This document shows positions 1,297 through 50,078 of a stretch of DNA of 64,000 bases, piece by piece. The notes under the pieces were generated by a model. That model was not told the origin of the DNA and ran no database searches. It worked only from the letters and a program-made list of their open reading frames with translations. Source of the DNA: Physcia stellaris. Taxonomy: Eukaryota; Ascomycota; Lecanoromycetes; Caliciales; Physciaceae. Both the position numbers and the translations under genes were made by a program. Each line of letters begins with the position of its first letter. Within the stretch, counting starts at the first letter, position 1. The DNA lies in the NCBI GenBank assembly GCA_018902385.1, contig JABSSW010000029.1, positions 310,001-374,000 of the forward strand. The letters run 5' to 3'.

Positions 1297-1745
1297 CTGA
1301 AGGCTTCTGTATAGAGATTTTAATGATTGACCCGGCCAGCGAGCACCGTCTATGCAAAAACATTTTCAACAAAAATTCTGTTGAGCAATAATATCGTCGA
1401 CTAATTTTTTTATTTAACGCGATCGAATTATGAAATTAATATGTACATAAAACGATTTTTCAAAAACGAATGAACGAAAAACGAAACGTTTCGAAAAATG
1501 AAAAACAAAAAAAAAAACAATAAACGATCGTTTGCAATATAACGAACAAAAAATTCGAACAATTTTTTTGACGATTGAATTTTTATGCGTTTTTTTTGCA
1601 TCAACATTTTTGTTCAACAAATCGAATTAATGTTTTTGAAAATTTTTGTATAAAAATTTTGATGATTGATTCGATCAACGAACATCGTTTATGCAAAAAC
1701 ATTTTCAACAAAAATTTTGTTGAACAATAATATCGTCGATTAATT
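1286..1745. repeat. Duplicated host segment at the left edge of block 1
   Basis: Two stretches just inside the left border of the AT-rich block are mutated copies of nearby host DNA. Positions 1,486-1,625 align with 16,925-17,066, and 1,626-1,745 align with 1,286-1,405. The mutated copies differ almost only by C-to-T and G-to-A. The order implies a host segment of about 340 bp present twice in tandem: one copy at 1,286-1,625, and a second split by the inserted block into 1,626-1,745 and 16,925-17,066. The segment spans the end of the first exon, an intron and the start of the last exon of the interrupted gene. Host-side copies outside the block are unmutated. Confidence 0.7.
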
Positions 1746-1749
1746 TTCA

Positions 1750-3303
1750 AATTTCAAAACAACGTCGCGCAACGAAAATCGTTGCAAACAAAACGACGTG
1801 CGTTCAACGAATTCGAAAAATTTGAAAACATCGAAAAACAATTAATTTGATTGTTTTATTGACGTCAATGTATAACAAATACGAATTGAACGATTAACGA
1901 TTCAACATTTGAATTATGATTTCGATAACGTTTTGAATTTTGATTTTTGTAACGATTTTTCGACGAAAAAAATGTTTTGAATAATGTTCACGTTTTTCAA
2001 CGATGCAAAATTTTTTGCGCAACACATTCGTGATCATTTGTGCATTGAAAAATTTGTACGATTCAATTTCGAACAATGACGTATTCGTTGTCGCAAAATA
2101 TTTGATAAAAAAATGACGCAAAAAATTGACAAAACAATTCGCATCGTTCGTTGCAACAATAATAATAATAACGTCGTGACGAAAAAAATTCATTTTGAAA
2201 AAAAATAAAATCAATTTCAAAAAATCGATTTGTAAAACAACGAAAAAACGAATAACGTGTCATTGAACAAAATCGAATTCGTTTTGTTCGTTCGTTTTAT
2301 ACGTAAATTTTTTTACACGAAAAAAATTTGCGAAAATCAAACAAAAAACAACGTGCATCGTGACGTTTTATTTGATGTTAATATTGAATTTTGTTAACAA
2401 TTTCAACAAAATATCACGAATAATGAATTTACATTTTCGACGATCGTTTTTTTGATATTTTTTTTTATTTCACGTATGTGACGTTGCAACAACGACGAAT
2501 TGAAAATCGAAAAATTTGAATAATCGCGATCAATATGTGCAAATTTCAATGCATCAACGTATGTTTTGATAATTTTGAATTTCAAACGATTTATGTTTAT
2601 AAAAATCATTCAATAATGCAATATTCATTCATTGATTGATCAAAAATTCAACGCGATCAATTTCATCGAACAATATCGTTTGTAATTGTTCATCGCAATT
2701 TCGTAATTGTGACATGTATTGAAAATCAAATTTCATCAAATGTAATTCGTTGTTTTTGAACAAAAAACATTTTGCGTATCAATTTTCGAACGAGTTTCGA
2801 ATCGCATAAAAATTACGAAAAAATTTGAAATCATGAAAATGTCAAATAAATTAATTGTTCAAATTCGTTAACAATGATATCATGTTTATTTCGTGACAAC
2901 AAATCAACAAAACGATTTTTCTTGAATTCGATTCAAACGATTTGAATTTCGATGTCGTGAATCGTCAACAACATCACGATTTTGCGTAAATTTTTCATGA
3001 CAAAATTTCGCATGATGTTTGAACGTAAATTTGCGCAAATCGTTTGATTGTTACAATGAACGATAAATTTGCAATCGTTGAAATTTTTGAATTAAATACG
3101 CATGACATGCAATACGATTTGCATTTTTTTAATTTGTATGTTTCGTTTTTTTGCGATATCGAGTGTTGAAACGTTGATTGAATATTTCGTCGAAAAATCA
3201 CGTCGATAACGAAATCGATAATTATCAATGTTTTATTTTTTGAAACGTCGATTCACATCAAACATTCGAAACGTGTTTCAATTTTTCGTATCAATTTGAT
3301 TTT
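1750..3303. mobile_element. Left flank of the older block 1 element, unidentified
   Basis: This saturated AT-rich stretch lies between the mutated host duplicate and the left LTR of the gypsy element. No domain is recognisable. With 14,422-16,915 it probably forms the host element into which the gypsy element inserted, about 4 kb in total. This is inferred only from the nesting. Confidence 0.4.
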
Positions 3304-3485
3304 TGTCAAAAAGTCGTCGTATGTAATTAATTGTATTGAAATTGACAAAAATACTAATTATGCAACGATATTAATTACATGTTGAAAGATTTTCTATTTG
3401 CGATAATTATTCGATTAATCGTTTCGATGATTCGCAAACTCGTTCAATTCGAATTTGACAAAAATTCGAAATCAAAATTATCACA
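3304..3485 (-). repeat. Left LTR of gypsy element 1
   Basis: Direct repeat partner of 14,240-14,421, with long stretches of near identity (for example the shared GCAACGATATTAATTACATG). It is the 3' LTR if the element reads on the minus strand. Confidence 0.85.
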
Positions 3486-4711
3486 TTATTTTTTTTTTTT
3501 AATTTCGCGAAGTTTCGACGAATTCGTTTCGTTGTTTTTTTCGTGCATGTTGTCATAAACGATCGTTAAATGTATCAATTTAATTTCTAAATTTCTTGAA
3601 CAATGCATAATGTTCATTTGAAAACGTCAAAATACGTAAAACAATCATTTTAATACGTTTTCGTTTTTTTTTGATTTCATTAAACGATTAAAATTGATTT
3701 TCAATAATTGCGTTCGTTCGTTTTCATTAACATTGTTTAACGTTCATTGAGTTTTTTGTTATTTCATTAATTATTTGATGAGATTCAATTTTCAAATCGT
3801 ACAAAAATTGCATGTGAATTCGTTTTTTTTGAATATTTGTGATGAAAATTTGTCATCAAATGCGATATTGTTTTCAAATCGATGTATGTGTATCAATCGA
3901 ACGTTGTATTAAGATTGTTTTGATTTGATTATTTCATTCGATATTTTAAACAGTTTTTAATTTTTGTGATTGAATCATTCATTCTTTTATCAATTTTGAA
4001 ATTCAAAATTTCGTTCATTTTTCACAAATTTTCATTGACGTCGATCGCAACAAATGATAATTGCATGTTTTGTTGTTCAAACATCGAATTCTCATCATCG
4101 AAATGTAAAAATCAAAAATGAAATATTGAAAAACATTTTTTCATGATTTGCGACAATTTCAATTCGTAAACACAATTGTCAATCACTCGTATAATTTTGA
4201 AAAAATTCAAATTTTTATAATCGAAATTTTTGTTGAATCGCATGATTTTAATATATCGCGCATCGAACATGATCATGTTATTTATTTTGAATTCGAATGC
4301 AAATGTTCGATGTGCGTTAACATATTTTTTTTGTTTGATTTGAAATTATTTGAATTCGTTTTTCAAATATTGTTTTAGTTTTTTCTGTTTAACAATGAAT
4401 TTATCGACATTTTTCATTTTTCGTCGTTGTACAAATTTGTCAATTATCGAAATCGATGATTTTAAATCTGATTTAAGAATATAATTTTTAGTGATCAAAA
4501 ATGATTCAATGTCACTTGATGCGTTTTTGCTGAAATTGTTTTCGAATTTCGTTATAGAAAAATAATCGTATCAATCGTTTTGATTGAAATTGACGTAAAT
4601 TTTCAAATATTGTTTGAAATTTGCATTGACGTTTTCGATTTGATCGTTTGTTTTTGAATGTCAAACGATGAAAAATTTGAAATGAATTTTTATTTTTTCG
4701 CACAATCGTTG

Positions 4712-5062
4712 TCAAAAATAAAACACAAATTGAATGTTTCGATTTGATATTATTGAATTTGAATAATTTTTTTTTTTCATATTCATTTTATGAAAATCTG
4801 TATCACGACATTGATTTTCAAAAAGTTTAACGAAATATATTTTTTTTTTGAAAAATTTATTCATTATAATTATGATGTGTTCGTAATTTTTATCGTTACG
4901 TTTGCATATCGATAAAAATGTTATAAAATTTATCGATATGTTTTGAAAATAACGATTCGATATAAATAACGATTTCAACAGTTTTTGTTTATTTTTTCGA
5001 TATGTTTTGATTTTTTTGCATTGATGACAATTTTTGACGTATTGAATCATTGTATCAGTCAT
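4712..5062 (-). mobile_element. Integrase remnant of gypsy element 1
   Basis: The minus-strand translation contains YVKNCHQCKK followed by a stretch resembling the start of the integrase core (ISINFITFL, compare the usual DISMDFVTGLP). This matches the second half of the HHCC zinc-binding region and the catalytic core start of Ty3/gypsy integrases. It is a fossil fragment. Confidence 0.75.
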
Positions 5063-6510
5063 GCGTGATCAAAAATAATGCGTAAAATTTTTATTATAAA
5101 TTGTCGTTTTGTTGACATGTTCGTTCGATAATGATTCGTGTATTTGTTTAAATATTGCTGAAAACACGTCATCATTGTGAAAAACGTAAAGTTTGTTTTT
5201 TATTCAAAATAATTCGTTTTTTATTTCGCAATTTTCTAATTTCAAACGTATTTCGATTTTGATAATGTTTGTCGATATTCGTTTTAAATCATTGCGTTTA
5301 TTTTTCATTATTTTTTGTAAAATGATGTCATTTGAATATGTCGTTTTTATTTGTTTTATTATGTCGAATTGAAACATGAATAAATTAATCGTTGATTTTT
5401 CTTTTGATTTTTCAATTGTTGATTTTTTTTCAAAAACACGTTTTGCAAACGATTTTTCATCTGATTTTTCGATTGCAAAAAATTTTTTCGTTCAATTCGT
5501 ATAACATCGTCGCTAAAATAGTAATTTTTCTTGATTTTCATTCATTAACAACGATGTCAATTTGATAACATTGCGAATTTTCTCGTCGAAATAATGAAAT
5601 TTTAATAAAATTCGATGATTGAATTGTTGACGTTCATTTTGTTATTTTTCAAATAAATTTTGAAATCGTCGAATCAAATTGTCAAATTTGATGTTTTGTA
5701 TTTTCGATTTGTACGTTATTTTAAAGTTGAATTCGATCAAAAATTCGATTCATTTAGTTTGTCGACGATTTAATTGTTTTGACGTCATAAAATGTTTTAA
5801 GTTTTTGTGATCGATAAAAATTTTAATAAAATTTTTCATCGACGTGTTTGCGCATTTTGATTGTCATTTTTCGAATGTTTTTTTTATTGTCAACAGTTTT
5901 TTGTCGTAAATTTCGTAATTGCATTTTGTCGACGACATTTTTTAAACATGTAAACAACGAAATGAAATTTGTCGTTCGATTTCATTTGATTGAAAATTGC
6001 GACGACGACAAAATCAAAAACATCAATTTTTATTCATGTTTCATTATCAGAATTAAAATGTTGCAATATTGATGTCGTAATAAATGTTAATTTCAAAATT
6101 CGAAACGCGATTTCTTCGAAATCATTTGAATTTCATGAAAATGCGAAATTTTTTTTTATTTTTTGTCAATTTACTCAAAGATGTGATTATTTTGAAATAA
6201 TCAAAAATGAATTTTTATAAAAATTAACGAAATCGAAAAAATTTAAACGTTTTTGACGCATTTGAATGATTTTCAGTTAATTATAACATCAATTTTTTTA
6301 AAATTCATCGTGATTTCATTCGTTGTTATGATCAATTCGAAATATTTGATTGATGTCACAAAAAATTCAAATTTGTCGATGTTCAAATACAAATTCGCTT
6401 TTTTTAATTTGATTAAAATTTTAAATACGTGATTCACGTGAACTTTTTGATGTCGTTGTAAACAATGATATTATTCGCGTATTTTGAACAGAAATCGTCA
6501 AAATATTTTT

Positions 6511-6810
6511 TCAATGTGACATTGATAAATGTTTAAAAAATTTCTGAAACGTTGCACAATTCAAAAACATAATCACATATTCGAATAATTCGTAACGAAT
6601 TAAAAATATTGTTTTTTTTATTTTTTTTTTGATGCGTATTTCGTTGAATGCGATTATGATGTCGAATTTGTTATAAATTTTGATCGAACACAATTTCGTT
6701 AATGTTTTTCTAATTAACGAAAATGCGTTTTTATTTTTGATTATCAAAACATTGAAAATTTTATAATCAACGCACATTCGCAAATCATTTTCGAATTTTT
6801 TTATTATCAA
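6511..6810 (-). mobile_element. Reverse transcriptase remnant of gypsy element 1
   Basis: The minus-strand translation includes LRMCVDYKIFNVLIIKN and, further on, RYELFEYVIMFLNCATFQKF. These match the palm and finger blocks of Ty3/gypsy reverse transcriptases (LRxCVDYRxLN; RYGxFEYxVMPFGLxNAPATFQ), with the usual Pro and Gly positions altered. It is a fossil fragment. Confidence 0.8.
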
Positions 6811-8060
6811 AATCGATGTTGCGTATTCGAAAAATTTGATTTGATAAAGTTTTTGTTTAACATATCGTCGATATATTTTTTAATCATTTTGATTTGATCA
6901 CGAAATAATTCGTACGTTTTTTAATTGAAAATATCGTTTCGAATTTCAAATCAATGCGATGATTTCAATTTTTCTAAAAGAAAATTTATTCGTTTCGACA
7001 AAATTGAAAATTTTGACGTATTTGTAAAATTCGACGAAAATTTTTTTTTTCAATTGTTTTTTCGTGAACGAAATTTTGTCAATTTTGTTAAAAAAATTTT
7101 CAAAGTTTTCGACGAAAATTGTCGTTATGTTTATCGCAAAAAAATTCGTCAACATGTATTTGTTTTGTTTTTGAATTTATTCAACATTTCAAAATGTTCG
7201 AATCATATTGTTATAATTTAATTTTTGTTTTAAATTATCATTTTCATGAATGCAATAATTGTGATTTTTGTTATGTTTGCATCGACAAATGATTTTTTGT
7301 TTGACGATTTTTTGATGTCGAAATTATAAACAATCGTTAATTAATAATTGTGAATACAATTTTTTAAACAATGATTGAACGCAAAAATTATTGATTTATT
7401 TTCACACGATATATTTATTGAATATTGTTTCAATTATGACATATTCAAAATCAAATCGAATTTTTTTAAAATTGTTATCAAACATCAAATTTCATTGACA
7501 TGTTTTTTCAATTGAAATTTTATTCGAATCATGCGAATAATATTGAAAACGAATTTATTATCGATTAATCGAAATTTGATAAATTTAATGAAAATCATGA
7601 TATCGAATTTGTGTTGTTTCACGAAATTGACATTTACGAAATTCGACGTCGAAATTTTTGTATTCGTCATAATTGATGTTTTTGTTGTTTTTGATGAAAT
7701 TTGAATTTTGTTTTGAAAATTCAATTGTCGTTTATTGATAATTTTGAATTGCAAAACGTTCACAATTAATAATGATAATTTGATTGTATTGAAATGCGAA
7801 TCGATTATATGTTCGAATTGTTTGATTCGTTTGCGCATTTTTTTGAAAAATTTTCGAACACGATTTTGTTCAAAAATTTTCAATTTTTTTGTTCGTCGTC
7901 GATCGATTCGAAAAATTCATCGTTCAACAAATTGTTTTTTTCAATTTTCATTTCGTTTCATTTCATTTCGAGTTTCGCGAATTCAATTATGATTTTTTTT
8001 TTAAAATCAAATTTTTGATTTTTGCACGAAACATCTTGTTCGTTGACTCGATAATCGAGT

Positions 8061-10247
8061 TTAAAGCACTTGTAACATTTCTTTTCGACTTTGAATTTGT
8101 TGACAACATGAAAAAACAATTGAAATAAATTGTATTTTGCGTTTTTGTTTTTGATTATTCGAATCGTGAAAAAAAATGTTAACGATTTTGTTTTTAATTA
8201 CACGAAAAATTGTATTCGCAATTCGAATTTTGAAAATTTTCGAAATTTTGAATTCGAAATGACGATCAATGTTATTCAAAATTTTTTTTTGATGTGTTAT
8301 CGTTCTTATTTCTCGAACGAATTTATGATAATTTTTGCATTTCGATAAATGAATTATCGCATTAATCAAACGCTTGATAATAATTTTAAATAATTGATTG
8401 ATTTTAAATATATCAATCAAATTTAACGATATCATCAAATTATTAAAACGATTCAGATATTGTTCGAAAATCTCATTTTTGTTTTTGAATTTCATAAAAA
8501 ATTTATTTTCGAAAAATTTATTGTATGCATTATTCATTTTATCGAAATTATTGTACACGTTTTTCAAATCGTTTATTAATTTTTCAATGAATTTATACGA
8601 ATGCGCGTTATCATAATCGACACGATGTTCAATGATATTTCAAATCAATTTTTTACAATGATTTCGTGCGTAATAAATTTTATTTTTTCGTTAAAAAATT
8701 GTCATGAATTTGATTCGAATTTGATTTTCAAATGAATTTTTTATTGTTTTCATTCGTTATAATTTTTATAAAAATTGAAAATGTTTTGATATTTAATTTT
8801 ATGTTCGTGTTAAATACGAAATATCAACGAATTTTTTTGAAAATGTTGATTCATGAAAATATTCGAAAATTCGTTTTTGAAAAAATATAATTGATTTTCG
8901 CAAGAAATTTTTAAATAACAATTCGATGAAATTTTTTCACGTCGAAAATTTTGACGTTTAAATTTTTTACGAATATTTTCTTGATCGAAATTATTAATGA
9001 AATTTTTTTGACGTGTTTGTTTATTGATGAAATTTAAAATTTTTTTTTCAAAATTGTTTTATTCAATCGAAAAATTTTTATTTTTTCGATTAATTTATTT
9101 TTCGAATTCGATGTTGATTTCGACAACGTTTCATTCGAAAAATTTTCATTTTTTGATGAATTAAATTTTTGTCGACAATTTGATTGAACAACAACTGATT
9201 TTTCGTTTGAATTAATCGAAATTAAAAATCAAAAAACTTTTGAATTTGAACGATGTTTTGTCGTTTTTGTTTTTTCAATTGAATATTTGTTTCAACATAT
9301 TCTTGTTGAATTTTTTGTTTCAATTTTTTTTATCAAATTTATTTTTTCAAAAACATAAAAATATTTTGCATTCAATCAATTGATCGATCGACAACGTTTT
9401 TTTTAAATTTATCAATGTTTTTTACTACAAATGAAATTGATGACTTGACATTTTTGTCAACGAATTTAAAATATAAATTCATTGTTTTTTTTGCGATAAT
9501 AATTTCTTGATTCGAATGTTCGAATTCGATGATAAATCGTCGATAAAAATATTTGTGTCGAAATCGACGTTTAATTTTGATAATCGAAAATGTAATTTGA
9601 AAATCATTTTTTCGTGTCGACGTATGAAAATTTTCGAATGCGACTTTTTGTGAATTTTCATTTTTTTCATTTTTTTTCGATTTTGAGTCAAATATGTCGT
9701 GTTTCAACAACGAATTCGAAAAATCAAAAGTTTTCGATTTATAAAATTTTTTTTGAATGATTTGATTTTGAATGTTTAAAATTTTTTTCATACGATTCAG
9801 TCGAGTATTAAAAATTGATTTTTTAGAAAATTGATTTGATTGTTCGAAAAAAATTCTAATACTCGATAAAAAAATGTTTTTTCAACAGAAAAATTCGAAT
9901 AATGAATAGATTTTCGAATTCGATTGATACGATTTCGATTTGTTATATTAACAATGATATGTTCTGTAAATGTTTTAAATTTCGATTTTGAATGAATAAA
10001 AAAATTTAGACGAATCAATTTAGATATGAAATTTTCTGAATTTCGATTTTTTGATTATGTAATAGAATTCGAATCTTGAAAATTTTCGAAAACTAAAATA
10101 AAAAAAAATGTTTGAAAATTCGAAACGTTGTTTGAATGATAAATATGTAAAATTTGACATTTCGAAATAAATGTTTCGAAATGTTTGAATGATAAATAAA
10201 ATGTAATTTTTGATGAATTGTAAAAAATGTAACACGAATTTTAACAT
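8061..10247 (-). mobile_element. Probable Gag region of gypsy element 1
   Basis: Several minus-strand frames lie upstream of the reverse transcriptase remnant, between the inserted LTR element and pol. The stretch 8,061-8,567 has the helix-rich, Gag-like pattern (NEIFEQYLNRFNNLMISL). Assignment rests on position and this weak resemblance. It is a fossil. Confidence 0.45.
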
Positions 10248-10372
10248 TATGTTTTATCGTTCACGATGCAAAAATTGAAAATTTTTTTTTTCGTCGTTCA
10301 ATTTGTATATCGAGCACGATGTTTTCGATAAAAATTTTTTTTTCGCGTTTTGATATTAGTTTTTCAAAATGA

Positions 10373-10640
10373 ATATTACATTGATATTTTCAATCGTAAT
10401 TTTCAAATCACGATATTTTCGTCAAAATTGAATAACATTCGAAAAATTATTTATTGTGTCATAAAATCACAATTTTCAATTTACGATATTTTCGTCAAAA
10501 TCGAATAATTTCGAAAATTAAATATTACATTGATATTTTCAATCGTAATTTTCAATTCACGATATTTTTTTTTCAATTGAATAATTAACGCATGTTGTTC
10601 AAATTCACGATATTTTCGTTCGAGTCAATTAATTAATGAA
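10373..10640. repeat. Short AT-rich tandem-like repeats in gypsy element 1
   Basis: The motif CACGATATTTTCGTCAAAAT or close variants recurs about four times. A longer unit (ATTACATTGATATTTTCAAT onwards) occurs at about 10,375 and 10,525. The repeats lie just left of the C2H2 element, in what would be the leader or early Gag part of the gypsy element. Confidence 0.6.
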
Positions 10641-10650
10641 AATTTTTTTT

Positions 10651-10849
10651 TATTGAAAGAATCGTGAATGACTATTATTTTATTGTTTTGAATTTCGTTG
10701 TTTCGATAACATACATGCAAAATGAAAACACAAAAAATGTGCGAATGTCAAGATATTAATTTCAACAAAAACGCATTAATTTTGTTTTCGTCAAATTATA
10801 TCAATTGAATTCTGATTGCAACACATTTGCGAAAATTGTATTTTCAACA
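10651..10849 (-). repeat. Left (3') LTR of C2H2 element copy A
   Basis: This aligns without gaps to 13,771-13,969 over 199 bp. Differences are nearly all C-to-T or G-to-A, and by eye almost all fall at C followed by C or T (either strand). CpA and CpG are kept nearly everywhere. Confidence 0.9.
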
Positions 10850-11635
10850 TTTTTTCACAACAATCGTTTGTGTCATCTGCTTTGTATTTTAACGAGTTCA
10901 ATTTGAAATTTTCGTGCAAACTTTTTCAACGATGTAAATTCTGCTTTTTCAAAACGATGAATTTTGAAATTCTTTCAACGATGTGACTTTTTCAACGATG
11001 CGTTGTTTGAAATTTTCGAGCAAACTTTCTCAATGCGATAAATTCGATGCGAAGATTGCAAAAACGAACGAATCGAAATTCGATAATTTATTGACTTCAA
11101 ATATGACGTAAAGTCGAATTGTAAAACGTGCGATCGAACATTTGAAAAATTGCGACGTTCTGAATATGCATCTTCATGAGATGAAACATCGATGTGAAAT
11201 TTGATATCTAAAATTGAATAGACGATACATCATGAAGCAAGTATCAATTGTCTGAATAATGCGATATTGACGAGAGTGCAAATCACATCATGATCTTGAT
11301 AACATCATTGTGAATTTCAGAATTCTCAGATATTTTTTGCGACATCAATGATTCGATTTCTATGTAATTTGACTGTAGAAAGTTCATAAGATATGTCATT
11401 GAGATGTGAAAAGCTGAAAATGATCGAGAAATCGATAAAAAAGATAGTGCATCGAGTGCGAGCAGACTTCTGCGAACATACATTGATGCAAAGAGTGCAG
11501 AATCGAGCTTTTCTGATCTGACTAAGATCTGCCAGAGAATCAGGTCGATTAGTATGCGAAAAGATCAAATATTTTCAGCACTATTTGTTCTTCTTGATCG
11601 AGTTCTTGCTTTGCAAGATCGAGTATGTAATGACT

Positions 11636-11826
11636 GCATAGTACGCTTTTTCGAAGCGATACTATGTGACTCCGAGTCGTATCTGTACAATACGCTTCTT
11701 CGAAGCGATACTGATCTGACTCTTTGTCATACGAGACTGTATAGTACGCTCTCTCGAAGTTGTACTGGCTAGTCTGTTCGTCCTTCTCTAACGTACAATA
11801 CGCTTCCTCGAGCTGTACTGTCACTC
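11636..11826. repeat. Array of four hairpin-forming repeats in copy A
   Basis: Four units spaced about 50 bp apart start near 11,636, 11,684, 11,738 and 11,791. Each follows the pattern AGTACGCT-TTTTCGA-AGCGATACT, an imperfect palindrome able to form a stem-loop. The array lies downstream of the C2H2 ORF, towards the 3' LTR. The same array is recognisable in copy B at about 47,380-47,600. Confidence 0.7.
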
Positions 11827-12176
11827 TCTCTCTCTCGTATTTATCGGGCGACTAAACCTCAAGGGTAGTAGGGAAAGAGGCGATAATTAGTCGTGTTAGA
11901 TCAAGACGAAGCCACAAAGGTAAGTCCCTACAAATTCGTGAAACAATAAACAAATAAACAAAGCATACAACAACTTTTAAAGCTCCCCCAGGCCGATCAA
12001 CGGTTAACAGGGGGGGGTGGGCGGGCAAACAACAAACAAACAACATGCTCTAACTCCCCCAGAGTAGTGACTCCCCCGACGAGGGGTCAATACTCCCCCA
12101 AAGTAGGGCGGGAGCGAGCGAAACGCATCCCCATGAGTTTCCCAACGTTCCCAACTCTTGAGGCACTTGGCATGGC

Positions 12177-13770: not shown

Positions 13771-13969
13771 TATTGAAAGAATCATGGATGACTACCATTC
13801 TATTGCTCTGAATCTCGTTGTTTCGGTAACATACATGCAGGATGGGAGCACAAGAAGTGTGCGAATGCCAAGACACTAGTCCCAACAAGGACGCACTAGT
13901 CCTGCTTTCGTCAGGTTATACCAACTGGATCCTGACTGCAGCACACCTGCGGAGGCTGTATTTTCAACA
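13771..13969 (-). repeat. Right (5') LTR of C2H2 element copy A
   Basis: This is the unmutated partner of 10,651-10,849. It is GC-balanced and ends exactly where the AT-rich gypsy sequence resumes at 13,970. Confidence 0.9.
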
Positions 13970-14239
13970 TTTTTCGCGTTTTGAAATTTTATTTTTCAAA
14001 TTAAAATAAACGATTGTTACAATACGTCGAAATCGTTTTCGTCATACGCAAAAACTGAATATTTTTCATACATAAATATCAATCACGATTGTTTTTGAAA
14101 TCGTTTTCAGATAAATGATTCGCATCGACGATAAATATTGCGTATTGAAATCGTTCGAACATTATCAATACGAAATTGACGAATAATTACATTTTTTGAA
14201 TAATCGTCAAATTGTCAAATAGATGAATAATTAATATTG

Positions 14240-36396: not shown

Positions 36397-36401
36397 ACAA
36401 C

Positions 36402-38086: not shown

Positions 38087-38281
38087 TGTAACGAGACGAA
38101 ATCGATTAAACAAACGCTAAAACATTGCGAATTTAATTGTCGCGTTTCGTGTTTATATATTCGAAATTTCACGAATTTTTTTTGTTTTTTAGCAATTAAT
38201 TTTATTATGTGTTTAACATTTATCATAACAATTAATATTATTATTCGCACATTTTAATCACGCAATGTTTACATTTTTACA
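38087..38281 (+). repeat. Left LTR of gypsy element 2
   Basis: Partner of 45,253-45,449, with long near-identical stretches (for example the shared TTATGTGTTTAACATTTAT). Confidence 0.88.
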
Positions 38282-40566
38282 ATTTTAATTGTTTTACATC
38301 AAAAATTGTTCGATTAAAAATGTTCAATTCAACAAATGCGTTTCGTCGTCGCGAAATTCGTTCGCAAATTCGTAATCGTGCGATCGTATCGATTATATCA
38401 CAATCAAACATCATTTTATCAAGCAATTTTTTTATGTTTTTTTTTTATCGATCGAGTTATTGAATTGTTTGATAATGTTCAATTCGAAAATTTTGATAAA
38501 AACAATGATTTTATCGATTTTGATAATGTCGACGTTTCAATTAAATATATTTTAATTTTCGAATTTTTGATTTCAAATGTTGATCAATTTTTCAATTCAA
38601 CATTTGTTACGCATTTTAATCAAAATGAAACACAACGAAAAAACAATTTTGTTTCGTTGTCGTCAAATAACGATGTCGTTGTGTTTGTTGTTGTCGATTC
38701 AAACGTAATTTTAAACAAATAAAAATGCGTATCAAAATGTTAAAAATTAAATCAAAATTCAGTAATTTTAAAACATTTTTGATCAAAACGAAAATGAAAC
38801 GTGATCGAAATCGTCGTCGTCGTCGCAACAACGATGATCAATAAAATAATTTGAAAAATTGATTGCGTGATTGCGAAAAAATATATCGTTTTCGATTTTG
38901 TTAATTTTCAAACAAAAAAATGAAAACAAATTGATCGACGTCGTTTTTGATAACGACAAAAAAATCAATGACGTAATTATGTTGATGTTCAATTTGAAAA
39001 ACAAACATGAAAACAATATAAAAATTATTTGTTAACGTTGTTTAACAATTCGATGATTCGTGTCATGAACACGATTATTGTCATTGAAAATGTCAAGCAA
39101 TTGTTTCGACAAAGCATTGTTGCGTTCAGTCAATATTTAATCAAATTGTGAAACAAATTGAAACGTCACGTTTCGAACGAAAAACGACAAAAAAAAAATT
39201 GTTGATCAAAATTCATGTTTTCATTCGTATCAAATGTGTAAAAATGCGAAATCATGAAATCGATTTTTATTTCAAATTAATCGCAAATTTGTTGATTGCG
39301 AAACAATTGTTTGTCGACGATAATACGTTAAATAAATCGTCGAACAATGTTACGAAAACAGAACAAAATAATGAAAATGATCAAAAAAAAAAAAAATGAC
39401 AATGACGACGATAAAAATAAAAACAAAAAAATTTCGCGTAACAGATTTGTTGAATTTGACAACGTTCAAAAAAAAAACAATCAAAATCAATTTTCGAAAT
39501 CGCAACAAAATCAACAAAATGAAAAAAAAAATGAAAATCGAAATCAAAATCACAATTTCGCATTTTCAAAATTCGAAAAACGCACATGTTTTTATGTTAC
39601 AAATCGAATCACATAACAAATGATTTTGTGTTCAAAAATTATGCGCAAATTCAAGAAAAACGCAATCAAAATCAAAATCAATCGTCGAAAAAAAAAAAAA
39701 CGAATTTGATGTTTGTCGTTGAAACATTGAAAATAAATTTAAAACGCAATAAATTTCGTGTTTTGATAATCACGTTATCAATTCAAACATTTGTTACGCA
39801 AACAAACAATACAACAATTATTTGTTTGATTGATTTTGATGTCGAAACGAATTTTATATTACAAATTTTTGTTAAACAAATGCAATTGTTTAAATTCAAA
39901 AAAATTGTTAAACAATATGTAAAAATTGTTAACGATCGTGTGATTCAAATGTATGAACATTATGAAAACATACATATTATGACACGAAATAACGAAAAAC
40001 ATGTAAAAAAACAAAATGTTGATTTTTGAACGATTAACATGCGTGAATACGACATGATTTTTGAATATTCATAATTGAATGTTGTCGATTTTGACATTCG
40101 TTGACATAATCGTCGTTGATTATATCGTGATAATAATTATGAAAAATTCAAACAAATTTCAATCAATTTTTGTTTTGCGAAAAAATTCGTTAATTTAATT
40201 ATAATTGTCATTGCGAATCGCAATCGTGTTTATGTCGCAATGTCATATCAAATGTTTTTTTTAACACAAAATTATCAATATCGAAAACGAAATGTTGTTC
40301 GTTGTGATACGTTACAAATAAATCGCAACGATTACATTTTTGATATTATTAAAAAAATAATCGAAATATTTTTCAAAACGTTGTCGAACAATTTGAATAC
40401 ATATAATCAAATCGAACATGTTATTGATTTGCAATCAAACAAAAAATCGCGTTTTGAATTTATATATAATATGTCACACGACGAATTTATTGTTATACGC
40501 AATTATTTTGAAAATGCGTTGACGAAAAAATGAATTCGATTTTTCAACATATTTGCGAAAATATTT

Positions 40567-40767
40567 GTGTTGTTTGTTAAAAAATCAAATAACAATTTGC
40601 GTTTATATATGAATTATCGAAAATTCAATGAAATCACGATCAAAAACAATTATTTATTGTTGTTATTGTTTGAAACGTTAAAACGTTTCGCGAATATTAA
40701 ATATTTTATCAAAATAAACATTCGAAATACGTATCATAAAATTCGTATTCGTCAAAAAAATGAATGA
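40567..40767 (+). mobile_element. Reverse transcriptase remnant of gypsy element 2
   Basis: The plus-strand frame reads LFVKKSNNNLRLYMNYRKF, then NEITIKNNYLLLLLFETL and YFIKINIRNTYHKIRIR. These align with the gypsy blocks LFVKKxDGxLRLCVDYRxLN, ITIKNRYPLPLIxETL and FTKxDLRxAYHxIRI. It is a fossil fragment. Confidence 0.8.
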
Positions 40768-43700
40768 AAAATTGTTTTCGTATTCGTTATGAACAATACG
40801 AATATTAAATTATGTTTTTCGATTTTGTTAACGTTTTTGTTATTTTTCAATTTTATGTTAATAAAACATTAAAATCATACATTGACGTTTTTTACGTGAT
40901 GTATTTAAATGATGTGTTAATTTATTTCGAAAATGAACAACAACATTGAAAACATGTTCGTTTGATGTTTAAAACGTTATTACGTTATCGTTTGTATGTC
41001 AAATTGAAAAAATGCGAATTTAATCAAAAAAAATCATTTTTTTAAATTTCGTTGTTGAACGCAATAATATTCAAATAAAACGTTCGCGTATAAACGCAAT
41101 CGTCGATTGATTTGAATTCGAAAATGCGAAAAATATCAAAATTTTTTTAAATTTTGTTGAATTTTATAAACGTTTTGTTAAAGAATTTTCGCAAATCGTA
41201 ACATTATTTACGAATTTGACGCGTGATGCGAAAAAAAAATCGTTTTTTATTTGTTATGACAAAAAATATTAAAATTGCGTTCAACGAATTCAAAATTAAA
41301 TTCACGATTGTTTTTATTTTTACGCATTATGATTGAAAAGCGAAATTACGCATGAAAATTGATGTTTTTGATCGCGAAACAAATAATGTGTTCAATCAAA
41401 AAAACAAAAACGATCAATAATATTTCATTGCGTTTTTCAATTACAAATTCAAAAAAACAAAAATTAATTGAAATACGCATGACAAAAAATTGTATACAAT
41501 AATGTTTGATTTCAAAAATTGAAAACATTATTTGCAAAATAACAAACATTTCATTCGCGTTATTTTTGATCACAACAATTTTCGATATTTTATAACAATC
41601 AAAAAATTCAATGCGAAACAAATTCGTTGAATTGAAAAATTAATTGCGTTTGATTTCAATATAAAATATCGCAAAAACAAATTGAATTTTGCGAACATGT
41701 CGTCGAAAAAATTTGATATTATGAAATCGAACGATAACGACAAAAACAACGATAAATTTTTGTTTATTTTGCGAAACAAATTTCGTAATCAAAATTATCA
41801 ATTTGATTTGCAAAACGATTAACGTGTGTTTGTTTCAATCAAATTTGCAACATCGACAACGCGATTGCGTAACATTGTTACGACAAATATTCGAAATATT
41901 GTTTCGAATGAAAAAATTCTCGATAAATGTGTTTGCAAAATTCTAAACATTGTCGCATTTCGATTTTTAATTCATCAAATTATGAAATCGAAAAAATTTT
42001 ATTTGAAATTGCGAAAATCAATGATTGCGTGATTATTCAAATTACAACAAAAAAACGTTTTTGTTGTTGAAAAACAATGACGTCAAAAATACGCAAACAA
42101 ACAAAACGAATTTTCGAAATGAAATGTTGAAAAAAATGAATTGTTTCGTCGTGATTTCGCAATTTATGTGTTTGAAAGTTTCGTTACAAAACAAAAAATT
42201 TTTCGTATGAATCATGACGATTCAAATGTTAAACATTTTGCATGAACAAAAATCGAAAATGTTGTACGACGCAAATATTTTTGATTTGACATAATTAAAA
42301 AATAACAAATTATGTACGCATTTGTTCAAATTGTTAACGAATGCGAATTTATCGACATAAATTATAACGATATAATAACAATTTCATCAAATGAAAAACA
42401 ATCATTTGATACAATTATCATGAATTTCATTACAAATATATTTTTGTTAAAAATTTTTACATTGAAAAAATTAACGATTTCATATTAATATTGATAAACA
42501 AATTGACAAAATACGCAACGTACATAACAATCACAAAAACGTTAAACGCGATAAATTTTACGAATTTGTTATAACGAAAATTCGTATATCGTTATGAAAT
42601 GATGTGTAACATTATTTCAAATCGAAAATTTTTTTTCACAAACAATTTTTGATTTATTTTGTGCTGAAATTTGAAAACGAAATGTAAATTTAATATTGTT
42701 TTTCATTTACAAACAAATGAACAAACAAAAAAATAAAATGTTATGTTCGAATATTATTTGCGAATGTATTGTAATTTCAAACAAAATAATTGATTAAAAT
42801 TGTTATTTATGACATAATTTGTTTACAATAATAACAAATATTCAAACATTGATCAAATTTTTCAAAAATTTTTATTTGAATACGTTGCGATTTTAAACAG
42901 CGATTTTGTGAACAATTTTCAAAAAAAAAAAACATTTGCAACAGATAAAACAAAAACGTTACGAAACAATCAAACGCATTTAATGAAATTGTGAAAAACG
43001 ATTTTCGAACAACAAATCAAATATTATAATGAAAATCATATAATGAAAAATTTTGAATTTGAAAAAAAAAATGTTGTTACGTGATGTAAATATACGCACA
43101 TTGCGTTTCAAAAAGAAAATTGATCATAAACAATTGAATTTTTCGAAATTGTCAAAAAAATAAATACGCAAATTTACGAATTTGATTTGTTTAAACAATA
43201 TGAATTTATACATTTTGTATTTCATGTTTTTTTATTCGAATTTTGATATAGTCGTGACGACGTAAATTCAAAATCGCAATCAATATTAATGAAAAACGAA
43301 AAAAAAAGAAAAATATCGCAAATGCTAAACAAGCGCATTAGAAAAAATCAATTTGAATATTTTATTGCATGAATAAACTCATCGTCATATGAGAATTCGT
43401 GAAAATCAATGAAATATTTCGAGAATGCGAAAAACGCAATTGTCAAGTTCGAAAATGCGCGCGAGTTACGCAAATTTGAAAAAATTGCGAAACGTCGAAA
43501 AACAAACAAATTCAAAACGAAATCGAACGAAAAACTTTCAACAAAAGAACAGACACGTCAATTTTTAAAACTGAAAAAACGTAAACGATTCAAAAAGCAA
43601 AAATAACAATAATTGCGACGCAAAAACACAAACAATAAAATGATATTATGAATCGTTTTTGATTATATGCACAATTTGTATACAACAAACAAACAACAAA

Positions 43701-45252
43701 ACAACACGTCACAACAAAAACAAAATTCAATATTCAACGAAAAAAAACACAACAACAAACAAAATCATGCGATTATTAAATCGAAAAAAACACGAAAATG
43801 TAAATCAACGCGTCAATAAATTTATCAATCAAAATTCACATTACAACAATCAAATCGATTTCGATTGCGTTATGTTAATTGTCGTCGCGTTTAACGAAAT
43901 TTTGTTTATTATTGATTACGCGATTTGATTGAATCGAAATCGACGCAAAAACAAACGCGACAACAAACGAATTTGTTTGCGATACAAACGCAACGAAATC
44001 AACAAACGAAACAAACGCAAACGAAACGAAAACGAAAAAATCAAAAAAACGACGCGAAAATCGAAAAACGAAACAAAAAAATTCGAGTTTTTTTTTCGAA
44101 CAAAAACAAAAACAAACGAAAAAAAAAATGACAAACAAAATGATGTTTTTTTCAACGAATTTTGACGTGACAATCAACGCAAACTTGCGAAAAATTTTTG
44201 ATAAAAACAACGAATTTTGTTTATGTTATTTTGTTTCATGTTAATCACGTTATGTATCAAAAATCGTATGTTATTATTTTTTCAATGTTGAAAAATCAAT
44301 TTCAAATTGTCGTTATTTTTGACAACGAGAATGCGAACGTTGTTTTGCAATTTGTAAAAAACATTGTTTTTTTCACAATAATGAAAATTTTTGTTGCAAA
44401 ATTCGCATTTGTTTCGTTTGTTTTCGTCAAAAAAACGCAAACGTGTTTTGAATCAAAACGAAATTTTCGAACGCAACGTTAACATCACATATGAATTGAT
44501 TTTGTTACGCGTCAAATTGATATGAAACAATTATATGTATTTATTTATTGAATTTGATTACAATACGATCGCGAACATCGCGATTCGAATACATATTTGT
44601 CGTATTGATTATATTCAACAATTCGAACGTAAAATTTTTTCAATTTAACACGCGTCAACAACGTCGTCGCTATTTACAATACATTTACAAAAACAGCAAA
44701 TTGCGTGTTTTTGCGAAACGTAACAAACAACGACGAAAAAAAAAATGAAATTATAATTTATTGTATCGTTAATATACGCATTGCATTGTCGACGTTCGAA
44801 AATCAATTTCGTCGTCATTGAAATATTATTGCGACAACATTATCATTTGCAAAAACGATGTGATAATTGTACAAACAACGATATATCATGTTGATATCAT
44901 TGTCGCAATAATTGTTATTATCGCAAAAACAAAAAAATCAAATGAAATATTTATCATGTTATAAAATAAAAATGTTAAAAAAAAAATTCAAAAAATGAAT
45001 TGAAAAATTGAAATAAACATTCATCAACACACGACGCGATTCATTTCGACTCGATTTCACAACACGAACGCGATATTTGAAATTGCATTGCATTGTTATT
45101 GTTATTTCTATTTATTGAATTACAATGTTTCAAAATTACACGTTGAAAACACGATATTACATACAAAACGACGTTGTTGCGACGCAATAATGATATATTA
45201 CAAAAACATTGATATTTGACACGAAAAATCGATCATTCAAAAAAAAAACAAT

Positions 45253-45449
45253 TGTAATGAAACGAAATCGATCAAACGAACGTTAAAACGTTGCGAATTT
45301 AATTGTCGCATTTCGTGTTTATATATTCGAAATTTTACGAATTTCTTTTTGTTTCTTTAACAATTAATTTTATTATGTGTTTAACATTTATTATAACAAT
45401 TAATATTATTATTCGCACATTTTAGTCACGCAATGTTTACATTTTTACA
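45253..45449 (+). repeat. Right LTR of gypsy element 2
   Basis: Partner of 38,087-38,281. Confidence 0.88.
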
Positions 45450-46413
45450 CGATCGTCATTTAATAAAAATTTCGATTTTGACGTCGTTCGAATATTATCG
45501 CAATTTGTTTTTTCATGAAATCGAAAATTACGTTAAACAAAAAACGAAATTAAAAATTGTTTTTCGAAAACAATGAATTGTAAAAAAACGTAAAAATCAA
45601 ATATTTCACACATTTTCGAATTCGATTCGAAAATTTGAAATGAAACGAAAAAAAAAAAAATCAATCGCAAAAAACGTGATTTTATCGAACAAAAAATAAT
45701 CGAAATTAAAAAAAATGATCGTTAACGTCAATATGTTGTCGTCAAAAAATCGAAACGAACGAAATTGTATAAAAAAATTATGCAAAAAAATCAATTAACG
45801 AACGTTAAATAAAAAAAAACAATAATTATCGATATCGACGAATTCAATCAAATTAATTTTTGATTCATAAAAAAAAATTTGAAAAACGTTTTCAATCATT
45901 TTCGAAAACGAAAACTTTATGAAATATAAATCGTATTCAAAACAATTTGCAAATAATTCGAAAAACGAAAAATTCAAAAAAAATGATTTCGCATTTTTTT
46001 TGTTTGAAATCAATTTCGAAATTTTTGTAATTGTGAATTTTTTTTTTCGATTTTTTTGATTTTGACAACAATTTTGATAAAAAAATTCGTTTTTATTTTC
46101 GTTTTCAAATTTTGAAATTATCGTTTCATCGAAAACGACGATTTTAACGATTTTGTTTGTTTAACAAAAATTGAATCAAATATTTCACGCGTTTAAAAAA
46201 TCGATCGAACGTGTAAAAATCAAATTCAAATATCAATTGAAATTGAAATCGCAAAAACGTGCGAATGCAACGAAAAAAAAAATCAAAATTCAAAAAAAAA
46301 CAACAAAAATAAAAAAAAAATCAAATTAATGACGTCACGAAAAAAAAAATGTATCGCAATTGAAAAAAAAATTTCGAATATTAAATTTTTCGCAATAAAA
46401 TTAACATGTAACG
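45450..46413. mobile_element. MULE-like element interior, no readable domain
   Basis: Saturated AT-rich sequence between two insertions, with long A and T tracts. No protein motif survives. Confidence 0.35.
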
Positions 46414-46418
46414 TCATG

Positions 46419-46616
46419 TATTGAAAAAATCGTAAATGATTATCATTTTATTATTCTGAATTTCGTTGTTTTTTGTAACATACATGAAACGACAACACAA
46501 AAAATGTGCGAATGTCAAAATATTAATTTCAACAAAAACGCATTAGTTTTTTTTTTCGTCAAATTATATCAATTGATTTCTTGATTATTTTTTTGCGAAA
46601 ATTGTATTTTTCAACA
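46419..46616 (-). repeat. Left LTR of C2H2 element copy B
   Basis: 198 bp. It aligns to the LTRs of copy A at 10,651-10,849 and 13,771-13,969 and to 49,553-49,747. Confidence 0.9.
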
Positions 46617-48061
46617 TTTTTTCACAACATTCGTTTGTGTTTTCTGCTCAATATTTTAACGAGTTCAATTTGAAACTTTCGTGCAAATTTTTCAACGATA
46701 AATTTTGAAACTTTTTCAACGATACGACTTTTTCAACGATGCGTTGTTTGAAATTTTCGAACAAATTTTTTCGATGACGTAAATTCTGTAAAGTTAAATC
46801 ATATATCGATGCGAAAATTGCAAAAACGAACGAATCGAAATTCGATAATTTATTGATTTCAAATATGACGTAAAATCGAATTGTAAAACGTGCGATCGAA
46901 CATTTGAAAAATTGCGACGTTTTGAATTTTCATGAAATGAAACATCGATATGAAATCTGATATTTAAAATTAAATAAACGATACATCATAAAACAAATAT
47001 CAATTATTTGAATAATACAATGTTGACGAAAATGCAAATCATATTATAATATTAATAATATTATTGTAAATTTCAAAAATTTCAAATATTTTTTGCGACA
47101 TCAATGATTCGATATTTATGCGATTTGATTGTAAAAATTTTATAAAATATGTCGATGCGATGCGAAAAGTTGAAAATGATCGAAAAATCGATAAAAAAAA
47201 TAATGCATCGAATGCGCAACATGCATTGCGAACATACATCGATACAAAAAATGCAAAATCGAATTTTTTTGATCTGACTAAAATTTGTCAGAAAATCAAA
47301 TCGATTAATATGCGAAAAAATCAGATATTTTCAGTTTCTTTTGATCGAGTTCTTGTTTTGCAAAATCGAATATGTAATGACTGCATAATACGTTTTCTCG
47401 AAACGATATTATGTAATTTTATCGAATTGTATCTGTACAATACGCTTTTTCGAAATTGTATTGTTTGATTTCATCGAGTTTCGAATGTGTAATAATTGAA
47501 TAATACGTTTTTTCGAAACGATACTATTTAATTTGTTCGTTTTCTTTTAACAATTGTGCGTACAACACGTCAATACGTTTTTTCGAAATTGCATTGACAA
47601 ATTGTATTTTCATTCTTTTTTTCTCGTATTTATCGAGCGACTAAGTTTCAAAAATAATAAAAAAAAAAACGATATCGTAAATTAGTCGTGTTAAATCAAG
47701 ACGAAATCACAACAAAAATAAATTTTTATCATATTCGTTAAACAATAAAACAAAACATACAACAATTTTTAAAGTTTTTTCAAATCACAAAACGAAAAAA
47801 GCGAAATATCGAATTCATTAAAACAACAACAATTTTTATGTTTTTTCAAATCACGATCGATCAACGATTAATTGAAAAAAAAAACGAACAAACAAACAAA
47901 CAAACAACATGTTTTAACTTTTTCAAAATAATGATTTTTTCAAAAAAAAATCAATATTTTTTCAAAATAAAACGAAAAGAAACGAAACGTCAATAACGCA
48001 TTTTCATGAATATTTCATTGTTTTCAACTTTTGAAACATTTGACATGATTCAATCGATAAA

Positions 48062-49078
48062 TCAATAAATGACGAAACGTTTTTGACAATGTTTGCAAAC
48101 AAAAAACGAACGAAAAATCATAAAAAATCGAAAAGAAAACGAGATAAATGAAATCGATCGTGAAAAAATCGAAAATTGACGCGAAAAGTTTTCGCGAACA
48201 TGTGTAAATGCAAATGTTTCGAATTTGATCGATTTGAAAACAAATATAATCATCGCATGAAAATATAACGTAATGCGATTTTGTATGAAATCATATTTGT
48301 TTGCGAAATTGCATTTGTCAAAATCGCGCGAAAAAAACGAACGCATTTGATGTCGTTGCAAATCAAATGAATTCGACTTTTCAACGAACATGCGAAACAA
48401 ATCGTTCACGATGAAATAAAATCTCGATGTAAAAATTCGAAACGAAATAGACGAACAAACAATGTTTGCATTTTTCGAAAATTTGCACATCGATTTGAAT
48501 GTCGCAATCGAAAAACGAAAAAATTTCGATGCCACGATTGATCGTGAAACGATTTTTGTTCAAAATATCGATTTTTTTGATGTTTCAATCGACAAAGATT
48601 TTGATGAAATAACTGATAATTCGATTATTGATTTCGATGATGCGTTTTCTGAACGTTCGCGTACAGTTTCTGATGTAAAAATCGCGAAAAATAAAAGTTT
48701 CGATGACGAGAAAAATGAAAAAATTATCGATCGAGATGACGAAACAGAAAATAAAAAAATTATCGATTCGAAAACAGATAAAACAATTAATTGCTGAACA
48801 AATTTCGACTTTTTCGCGTATCGAGTGCGAATATGCTCGTGAAATTTGATGTTGTTGTCGAATTTGCTTTTGCAACGTTTACAAATATACTTTTCAATTC
48901 GTTTCGTTGTTATGAGATTTTTTTTTTTTTTTTTCAACTTTTTCGCTTTTTGTTTGATTTTGTTTTTCATTTTTATTTCGTGTTTTCGCATCAAATAATT
49001 TTTTTGTGTTTTTTTGTTTGAATGAATCAAGAACATTTTTGATTTGTTTGATTTTGTTGATGTTATTCGTACAAACAT
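48062..49078 (-). mobile_element. Fossil of the C2H2 ORF in copy B
   Basis: Minus-strand frames retain CKRCKSKFDNNIKFHEHIRT (compare CRRCKHSVKFDSNIKLHEHI in copy A) and LQRHQMRSFFSRDFDKCNF (compare LQRHQMRSFSPRGPGKCSP). These are colinear with copy A. Proline and glycine positions are largely replaced. It is heavily broken. Confidence 0.85.
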
Positions 49079-49552
49079 CGAAAATTTTGCGTTATTGATT
49101 TATTGACGAATATGTCATTGACTAAAATGCAAATGCAAAGAAAAATGATCAAGAAAAAAAACGAACGACGATTCGAAAATGAAAAATGCGAAATTCGCAA
49201 AATGATACGAATCGTCATTTTGACTGAATGATAAATAAATTTCACGTTGAAATTTCGATATCGTAAAATATTCGTAAAAAAGTTCGATAAATAGACGAAT
49301 TCGCGAAAAATTCGTAAAATAAATAAAATGTTCGAAAATTAATTTGTATCAAAATATTGAATGTTGTCAATGCAATTGAGTCGATTTCGATTTGACAAAA
49401 CTGAATATTTTATTGAAATTGATTATTGTTAAAATATTGCAATTTTTGTTGTATTGTTTGACGATTATTTATTATTTGTTTTGACATGCGTTGTCATGTT
49501 GTTGTAATTGATATTAAATGTAACGAAAATTGTTAATTCGATTTTCATAATC

Positions 49553-49747
49553 TATTAAAAAATGTATGAATGATTATCATTTTATTGTTTTGAATTTCGT
49601 TGTTTCTTGTAACATACATAAAACGACAACACAAAAAATGTGCGAATGTCAAAACATTAATTTTAACAAAAACGCATTAATTCTTTTTCGTCAGATTATA
49701 TCAATTGATTTTTTGATTATTTTTTGCGAAAATTGTATTTTTCAACA
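49553..49747 (-). repeat. Right LTR of C2H2 element copy B
   Basis: 195 bp, partner of 46,419-46,616. It is followed directly by the tcatg target duplicate. Confidence 0.9.
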
Positions 49748-50078
49748 TCATGTAATAATAAAATCATTCATTTTGAATATCGTTTCGTTGATTTTATTTT
49801 TTTTATTTTTTTTATTTTAACGTTTACAAATTTTATTACGTGATAAAATTCGAACGCATATTGATTCGTGTCAAAAATATTCGTTTAAAAATCAAAATAC
49901 GATTAACAATTCAAATACGAAAAAAAAAAAAAATAAATCGTCGATGAAAATAAATCGAAAATCGAAAACGAACGACGAAATACGAATTTCGCGAAATGAT
50001 ATTTCGTTTTATTTTCAACGTCATGACGACAAAAAACGAATGAATATCGCATATATTGTTAGATAGTGAATAACGATG

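What the first reader, a model, noticed from the sequence alone, without database searches (positions are those of the whole stretch)
1400..50060. RIP-like hypermutation with a CpC/CpT context instead of CpA
Both transposon blocks show C-to-T and G-to-A change, but the context is unusual. Comparing the two 199-bp LTRs of C2H2 element copy A (mutated 10,651-10,849 against intact 13,771-13,969), by my count nearly every C followed by C or T has changed, on both strands. About 15 of 17 CpA, all TpG and all CpG are kept. In CCA the first C changes and the second stays. In saturated stretches (for example 2,221-2,460) CC, GG, CT and AG are essentially absent while CA, TG and CG abound. Classical RIP in Neurospora and most Pezizomycotina prefers CpA. 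A 3'-neighbour rule favouring pyrimidines suggests a differently tuned RIP-type enzyme, or another deaminase-like mutator.
Basis: partly seen in the sequence, partly recalled or inferred. Interest (0 to 1): 0.92.

Follow-up and report, generated by a model that had tools for sequence, protein, structure and literature searches.

The report
RIP hitting CpC/CpT, sparing CpA
In this fungus, repeated DNA has been crippled by changing C to T where the next base is C or T while C before A or G is almost left alone, the reverse of the usual fungal rule and missed by the standard indices used to detect it.

Summary
In 86 AT-rich 1-kb tiles (window plus 17 sampled loci) CpC is practically gone (39 counts on both strands, against 10,374 CpA and 10,042 CpG) and CpT is depleted. 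Mutated copies aligned to an intact copy give the rule. In one reverse-transcriptase family, five copies: CpC 2197/2488, CpT 1443/2150, CpA 179/2257, CpG 140/2354 changed. LTRs and a tandem duplication agree. Order: CpC > CpT >> CpA, CpG. Several young tracts, not all, are strand-biased, as are most Neurospora RIP clusters. Stops inside reverse-transcriptase matches are 250 TGA, 33 TAA, 3 TAG. Classical RIP indices call none of the 86 tiles RIP. The genome has two RID/Masc1-like genes, a DIM-2 orthologue and a mating-type alpha-box gene. Best reading: RIP with its 3'-neighbour preference changed from A to pyrimidine, probably by a RID-family enzyme. The enzyme and the timing are inferred, homology dependence was not shown, and the species is unknown. 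None of the 14 papers whose passages I saw reports this context.

The parts
1350..11850 (.). mutated block 1, left part: saturated to about 11,000, then fading to unmutated by about 11,850 (edges by eye)
3301..3498 (+). left LTR of the block-1 LTR element (partner 14,237-14,434, 91% alike); window 3,000-9,000 has seven relatives longer than 4 kb at 81-94% identity in the genome
   Evidence: 40 of 333 candidates scored
14237..14434 (+). right LTR of the block-1 LTR element
10651..10849 (+). mutated LTR of copy A: CpC 18/18, CpT 22/26, CpA 2/36, CpG 0/12 changed against the other LTR
13771..13969 (+). unmutated LTR of copy A
13970..16950 (.). mutated block 1, right part, near saturated
1289..1415 (+). 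X1: a piece of a tandem duplication (spacing 339) at the left edge of block 1, largely unmutated
1501..1619 (+). Y1: mutated; against Y2 CpC 13/13, CpT 14/14, CpA 2/17, CpG 0/12 changed
1628..1754 (+). X2: mutated; against X1 (first 92 bases) CpC 8/8, CpT 10/10, CpA 0/13, CpG 0/6 changed
16941..17059 (+). Y2: largely unmutated partner of Y1 at the right edge of block 1
31618..50060 (.). mutated block 2; 37-50 kb near saturated, 32-36.8 kb CpC-depleted but only partly CpT-depleted (edges by eye)
32434..32660 (+). repeat (LTR-like) pairing with 36,180-36,406; 14 of 17 C/T or G/A differences are at CpT
46416..49740 (+). second C2H2-type element (copy B) with LTR-like repeats at 46,416 and 49,550, near saturated
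31557..31611 (+). inverted repeat flanking block 2 (partner 50,079-50,133, 87% complementary)

Best explanation
Repeat-directed C-to-T hypermutation of the RIP kind whose mutator reads a 3' pyrimidine: CpC first, CpT next, CpA and CpG hardly at all. Shown: the direction, the 3'-neighbour rule, the order CpC > CpT, the presence of the rule in every AT-rich place sampled, its presence in repeats and in a tandem duplication, and strand-biased young tracts, two of which show CpC and CpT changed on the same strand. Inferred: that it is driven by a RID/Masc1-family cytosine methyltransferase (one or both of the two RID-like genes) with an altered target-reading surface, that it acts in the sexual phase, that it recognises repeats by homology, and that one enzyme makes both CpC and CpT changes. 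Consequence: Gln codons (CAA/CAG) mostly survive and Trp (TGG) becomes TGA, so elements die mainly by TGA stops.
For: Dinucleotide counts. LTR pair. C2H2 family, eleven copies against the intact copy L025: the one saturated copy L029 has CpC 232/255, CpT 171/251, CpA 24/283, CpG 14/186, 33 of 51 alignment windows kept. Reverse-transcriptase family, five copies over 3.5 kb with no window dropped, e.g. L040: CpC 392/494, CpT 191/423, CpA 16/452, CpG 11/471, with 50 other changes in 3,485 aligned bases. Tandem duplication. Strand tracts, picked after viewing profiles: L027 CpC + 43/64, - 5/46 and CpT + 20/60, - 6/62; L028 2,080-3,234 CpC - 48/67, + 10/33 and CpT - 24/69, + 10/81; L040 first 350 bases CpC + 1/26, - 31/33. 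In N. crassa about 91.9% of RIP clusters are C>T only or G>A only (PMC7296669, passages). Stops in 140 of 150 scored reverse-transcriptase matches: 250 TGA, 33 TAA, 3 TAG. Block 1 is repetitive. RID-like genes C6 (508 aa) and C5 (934 aa), both with methyltransferase motifs I, IV, VI, VIII, IX, X (motif names recalled); DIM-2 orthologue; mating-type alpha box.
Against: No cross, knockout or expression data. A direct test of homology dependence did not support it: along the C2H2 element, CpC change in partly mutated copies did not fall with divergence between copies (Spearman +0.39, p 0.07). Largely unmutated repeats exist: C2H2 copies L025, L026, L031, L032, L033 and two reverse-transcriptase-family copies 95% alike. 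In 7 of 11 C2H2 copies neighbouring changes showed no strand clustering beyond shuffles at p < 0.05, and four of the nine partial tracts tested had no strand bias for CpC. Sparing is not absolute: in the oldest-looking copy L044 CpA 60/453 and CpG 47/470 are changed, about 13% and 10%, against about 2.6% reverse transitions at A/T sites (my arithmetic), so a weak CpA/CpG activity or ordinary decay is present. RID-like genes could not be compared with known RIDs because the protein database was off. Timing in the life cycle is unknown.
Confidence: 0.75

Rival explanations
1. DIM-2-type heterochromatin methylation in CpC/CpT context followed by slow deamination of 5-methylcytosine in vegetative growth, with no RIP step.
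For: A DIM-2 orthologue is present. A 2026 review gives Neurospora DIM-2 a preference for CpT (PMC13297926, passages). Saturated blocks look like long-standing targets.
Against: CpC goes before CpT. Some young tracts are dense, strand-biased and end inside one element, unlike scattered deamination. The same review's table lists all CpN contexts for DIM-2, yet CpG and CpA are largely spared here.
Confidence: 0.12
2. A single-strand DNA cytidine deaminase (AID/APOBEC-like or unknown) with a 3'-pyrimidine preference.
For: Strand-biased tracts. Cytidine-deaminase-fold genes exist: 8 PF00383 matches, none examined singly.
Against: Context lies on the 3' side, whereas AID/APOBEC enzymes read the 5' side (recalled). 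Both strands end up saturated. A tandem duplication flanking the block is mutated; if it is host DNA, which was not tested, editing of cDNA alone cannot explain it.
Confidence: 0.08
3. Ordinary, broader RIP followed by mismatch repair that restores C at CpG and CpA.
For: Repair with a 3'-neighbour preference at CpG is known in other organisms (recalled).
Against: CpA sparing is nearly complete (2/36, 2/30, 16/452) where CpC is 79-100% changed; repair would have to be nearly perfect at CpA and absent at CpC.
Confidence: 0.04
4. Sequencing artefact: modified cytosines before C or T miscalled as T in repeats.
For: The genome is an unnamed assembly and no raw reads are at hand.
Against: Different copies of one element range from largely untouched to saturated; changes can form one-strand tracts and stop inside an element.
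Confidence: 0.01

Closest known systems
RIP in Neurospora crassa (RID-dependent, CpA)
   Same: C>T on both strands in repeats, strand-biased clusters (passages), RID-family gene, AT-rich blocks (in part recalled)
   Different: CpA, its main target, is largely spared here; CpC is hit first; classical RIP indices are negative. One alignment count in N. crassa Tad1 saw CpT changes above CpA (passages), so a CpT share is not new
CpT-sharing RIP: Magnaporthe oryzae, Botrytis, Sclerotinia, Anisogramma, RIP-capable control fungi of van Wyk 2021; passages only
   Same: CpT to TpT changes prominent; the survey's species with CpA or CpT signatures have a RID/Masc1 gene in one or two copies
   Different: CpT goes with CpA; no CpC-led signature appears (0 occurrences of 'CpC' in the main text)
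Stagonospora nodorum repeats (passages)
   Same: CpC and GpG depletion reported in repeats
   Different: there CpA, CpG and TpG are depleted too and CpA to TpA dominates
Monacrosporium haptotylum (passages)
   Same: no CpA drop in repeats; authors suggest another dinucleotide preference
   Different: TpA is high and classical indices are RIP-positive there
CpG or TpCpG mutation bias in Microbotryum and other basidiomycetes (passages)
   Same: lineage-specific target context
   Different: CpG is kept here; those species have Masc2-type, not RID-type, genes
Zymoseptoria tritici meiotic RIP (passages)
   Same: RIP-type C>T in duplicated DNA
   Different: 240 of 242 mutations in CpA

Membership tests
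RIP | C:G to T:A transitions on both strands, few other changes | tested here: met
   L040 611 C>T/G>A against 50 others; 42 of 43
RIP | acts on repeats and duplications, not single-copy DNA | tested here: met
   Searches (block 1 in many copies; families; tandem duplication), non-AT tiles ordinary; but largely unmutated repeats also exist, and copy number was tested for only part of the mutated DNA
RIP | mutation falls where copies diverge (homology dependence) | tested here: inconclusive
   Spearman +0.39, p 0.07, opposite in direction to the expectation
RIP | one strand at a time in a single round | tested here: inconclusive
   met in some tracts (L027, L028 right end, L034 and L035 left end for CpC; L040 left end), absent in others; tracts chosen; single rounds cannot be isolated
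RIP (classical) | CpA as main target, TpA rise | tested here: not met
RIP | RID/Masc1-family gene in the genome | tested here: inconclusive
   two genes with PF00145 and PPCQ; family assignment rests on motifs and layout, recalled; no known RID sequence could be compared
RIP | premeiotic timing | not testable with these tools
   only a mating-type alpha-box gene was found
RIP | minimum duplicated length and identity | not tested
   -
APOBEC/AID-type editing | 5'-side context (recalled) | tested here: not met
   5' base has a small effect, 3' base decides

The most novel reading that the evidence does not exclude
The mutator is not a RID-type methyltransferase at all but an unrecognised, strand-processive fungal C-to-T editor that reads a 3' pyrimidine, so that RIP-like genome defence has been replaced or joined by a second enzyme in this lineage.
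Probability: 0.12. Interest if true: 0.93.

Novelty: new variant of a known kind. Interest (0 to 1): 0.8.

Why it matters
CpA preference is built into how RIP is commonly detected. Here the most heavily mutated DNA scores as RIP-negative (mean TpA/ApT 0.43-0.46, mean composite index about -0.9 in the AT-rich tiles), so surveys based on those indices could miss such genomes. How RIP chooses its cytosines, and whether RID itself sets the context, are open questions as far as I know: a genome with two RID-like genes and a clean reversed context offers a direct test by deletion or by expression in a Neurospora rid mutant. It also changes what RIP does to proteins: mainly TGG to TGA stops, with Gln codons spared.

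Tried and rejected
Homology dependence along the C2H2 element: not supported. Unmutated relative of the block-1 element: L036 and L037 turned out to be mutated themselves; in the few alignable windows (9-20 of 73-87) CpT changed 0.78-1.00, CpA 0.27-0.32, CpG 0.21-0.29, and I did not use these divergent pairs for the rule. AlphaFold model of the DIM-2 orthologue: mean pLDDT 31.8, unusable. RID relatives in viral contigs: none. Species: not found; the 18S family search did not complete and a 5.8S pattern gave no match. PDB searches with two window genes gave no species. Rfam on the window: no match at gathering scores. Deaminase search: 8 matches, not followed.

Literature: searches were answered and listed 28 of 28, 30 of 33, 7 of 9, 25 of 56 and 25 of 71 papers; searches failed. 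I saw found passages of 14 papers, none whole; the other listed papers were seen as titles and abstract starts only. Clutterbuck's 2011 survey of RIP in ascomycetes (cited in passages) was not looked up, and the DOI that I took for the OcculterCut paper is not held, so an earlier report there is possible.

Full report
What is there. The window lies at C29:310,001-374,000 of an unnamed 44-Mb, 147-contig genome. I take it for an ascomycete from its RID-like and DIM-2 genes and a mating-type alpha-box gene. Two AT-rich transposon blocks (about 1.35-16.95 kb, with a largely unmutated island at 11.85-13.97 kb, and 31.6-50.06 kb) sit among ordinary DNA of about 45-59% GC. In 2,001-10,800 there is not one CpC on either strand, CpT is at 0.13 of expectation, CpA at 1.34 and CpG at 3.7; in 17-31 kb and 51-64 kb the four CpN ratios lie between 0.84 and 1.13.

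Genome-wide check. One search fetched 20 stretches. Three around methyltransferase genes were left out of the tile count; the other 17 are two beside the window and 15 at places picked by contig number before looking, so not a random sample. Of 234 one-kb tiles, window included, 86 have GC below 0.32; 57 of these lie among the 170 tiles outside the window, in 8 of the 17 loci. In three GC bins their mean CpC O/E is 0.00-0.04, CpT 0.12-0.39, CpA 1.22-1.30, CpG 2.9-4.0; the lowest CpA in any of them is 0.99 and the highest CpC 0.26. By the usual lenient pair of indices 2 of 234 tiles are RIP-positive, none of them among the 86; by the strict pair none of 234 is.

Polarised counts. (a) LTRs of the nested C2H2-type element: CpC 18/18, CpT 22/26, CpA 2/36, CpG 0/12. 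(b) Eleven copies of that element (of the 111 matches listed) against the intact copy L025, keeping only well-aligned 60-base windows (31-38 of 49-52 per copy): the largely unmutated copies L026, L031, L032 and L033 show 2-10% change in all contexts; the saturated copy L029 shows CpC 232/255, CpT 171/251, CpA 24/283, CpG 14/186; lightly hit copies are CpC-led (L028 CpC 81/278, CpT 38/299, CpA 13/308, CpG 9/233; L030 74/241, 34/255, 12/287, 9/177). For the window copy itself against L025, bases before 11,000: CpC 43/46, CpT 35/47, CpA 5/54, CpG 3/24; fading part 11,000-11,850: 70/93, 38/122, 6/108, 5/99; rest: 36/266, 20/265, 14/269, 18/225. (c) A reverse-transcriptase family (LINE-like by look, type not tested) with an unmutated copy at C12 (L039) and 41 matches (40 of 235 candidates scored). 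Five copies chosen to span identity, aligned over 3.5 kb with no window dropped: CpC 79-95%, CpT 45-87%, CpA 3.5-13%, CpG 2.3-10%. The least mutated, L040, has 611 C>T/G>A against 22 reverse transitions and 28 transversions. (d) A tandem duplication (spacing 339) at the edge of block 1, one copy of each piece being largely unmutated: CpC 21/21, CpT 24/24, CpA 2/30, CpG 0/18 over the two pieces compared. The 5' neighbour and the second 3' neighbour have small effects.

Order and strandedness. CpC is exhausted before CpT: 32,001-36,800 has CpC 0.03 and CpT 0.66. In some young tracts one strand is hit: L027 CpC + 43/64 against - 5/46 (Fisher 1.8e-9) and CpT + 20/60 against - 6/62 (0.0018); L028 2,080-3,234 CpC - 48/67 against + 10/33 (1.1e-4) and CpT - 24/69 against + 10/81 (0.0015). 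L034 and L035 (left ends) show it for CpC (1.3e-4, 0.0022) but not for CpT (1, 0.12). L030, L028 420-800, L035 right end and the window copy show none; the saturated L029 shows it for CpT only (4.7e-6). Tracts were picked after viewing, so the p-values overstate. Against shuffles over whole copies, clustering by strand was seen in 4 of 11 copies at p < 0.05 (L027, L030, L034, L035). In L040 the first 350 bases have CpC + 1/26 and - 31/33, later bins are mixed. In N. crassa about 91.9% of RIP clusters are one-strand (PMC7296669, passages). That CpC and CpT change on the same strand of two tracts argues for one process.

Effect on genes. Of 527 candidate reverse-transcriptase matches 150 were scored; 140 contain stops: 250 TGA, 33 TAA, 3 TAG. 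Many are related copies, not independent. A CpC rule turns TGG into TGA and leaves CAA and CAG; [quoted passage not shown]

Machinery. PF00145 finds four matches in three genes. C3 matches PDB 9bap (E 4.6e-188), which I take to be Neurospora DIM-2 (recalled), and carries Pfam DUF7893. C6 (508 aa) and C5 (934 aa), spliced by eye, seem to share an intron position, share an N-terminal homology region (33.6%) and are 39.7% identical over the methyltransferase domain; both keep PPCQ and the other motifs. I call them RID/Masc1-like from these features and memory; no RID sequence could be compared. A survey reports RID/Masc1 in one or two copies in its five CpA species (passages). Which gene acts here is unknown.

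Known contexts (passages only). A ten-genome survey found CpA, CpT and CpG signatures (PMC4352252). RIPCAL reports CpA dominance with CpC depletion in S. nodorum, CpG and CpA in A. nidulans, CpG in Microbotryum, and CpT above CpA in N. crassa Tad1. Van Wyk 2021 reports CpT to TpT as dominant in alignments of RIP-capable fungi. Z. tritici: 240/242 CpA. Anisogramma: CpA and CpT. M. haptotylum lacks the CpA drop but has RIP-positive indices. So a CpT share has precedents; a CpC lead with CpA and CpG spared does not in the 14 papers seen. Key subscription papers are not held.

Against my reading. Homology dependence was not shown. Largely unmutated repeats persist. Strand bias is not universal. 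Older copies show CpA and CpG change well above other classes (L044 about 13% and 10% against about 2.6% reverse transitions). Timing and enzyme are inferred. DIM-2 deamination, a deaminase, repair filtering and artefact are weighed as rivals.

Noticed in passing
window 31,557-31,611 and 50,079-50,133: Imperfect inverted repeats (87%) flank block 2 just outside the saturated part; perhaps termini of a DNA transposon into which other elements nested.
   Followed up: no
window 1,289-1,754 and 16,941-17,059: A tandem duplication (spacing 339) seems to have been split by the block-1 insertion, leaving X1-Y1-X2 on the left and Y2 on the right; Y2 lies within an ORF at 16,530-17,189 (- strand).
   Followed up: partly
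L038 4,900-8,900 (contig C137): A mosaic of saturated and unmutated-looking patches (CpC O/E up to 1.09 at 33-34% GC); possibly an assembly mixture of two copies or gene conversion.
   Followed up: no
C12:58,999-62,499 and C5:1,165,209-1,168,708: Two copies 95% alike of the reverse-transcriptase family, the C12 one checked and unmutated, beside 39 other matches, of which the five fetched are all mutated: some repeats have escaped so far.
   Followed up: partly
C4:738,502-738,876: Mating-type alpha-box gene, so a MAT1-1-type idiomorph seems to be present.
   Followed up: no
window 10,651-11,850 and L027 about 1-1,200: Mutated tracts in two copies of the C2H2 element end near the same place, about 1.2 kb from the left LTR; not explained.
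   Followed up: no
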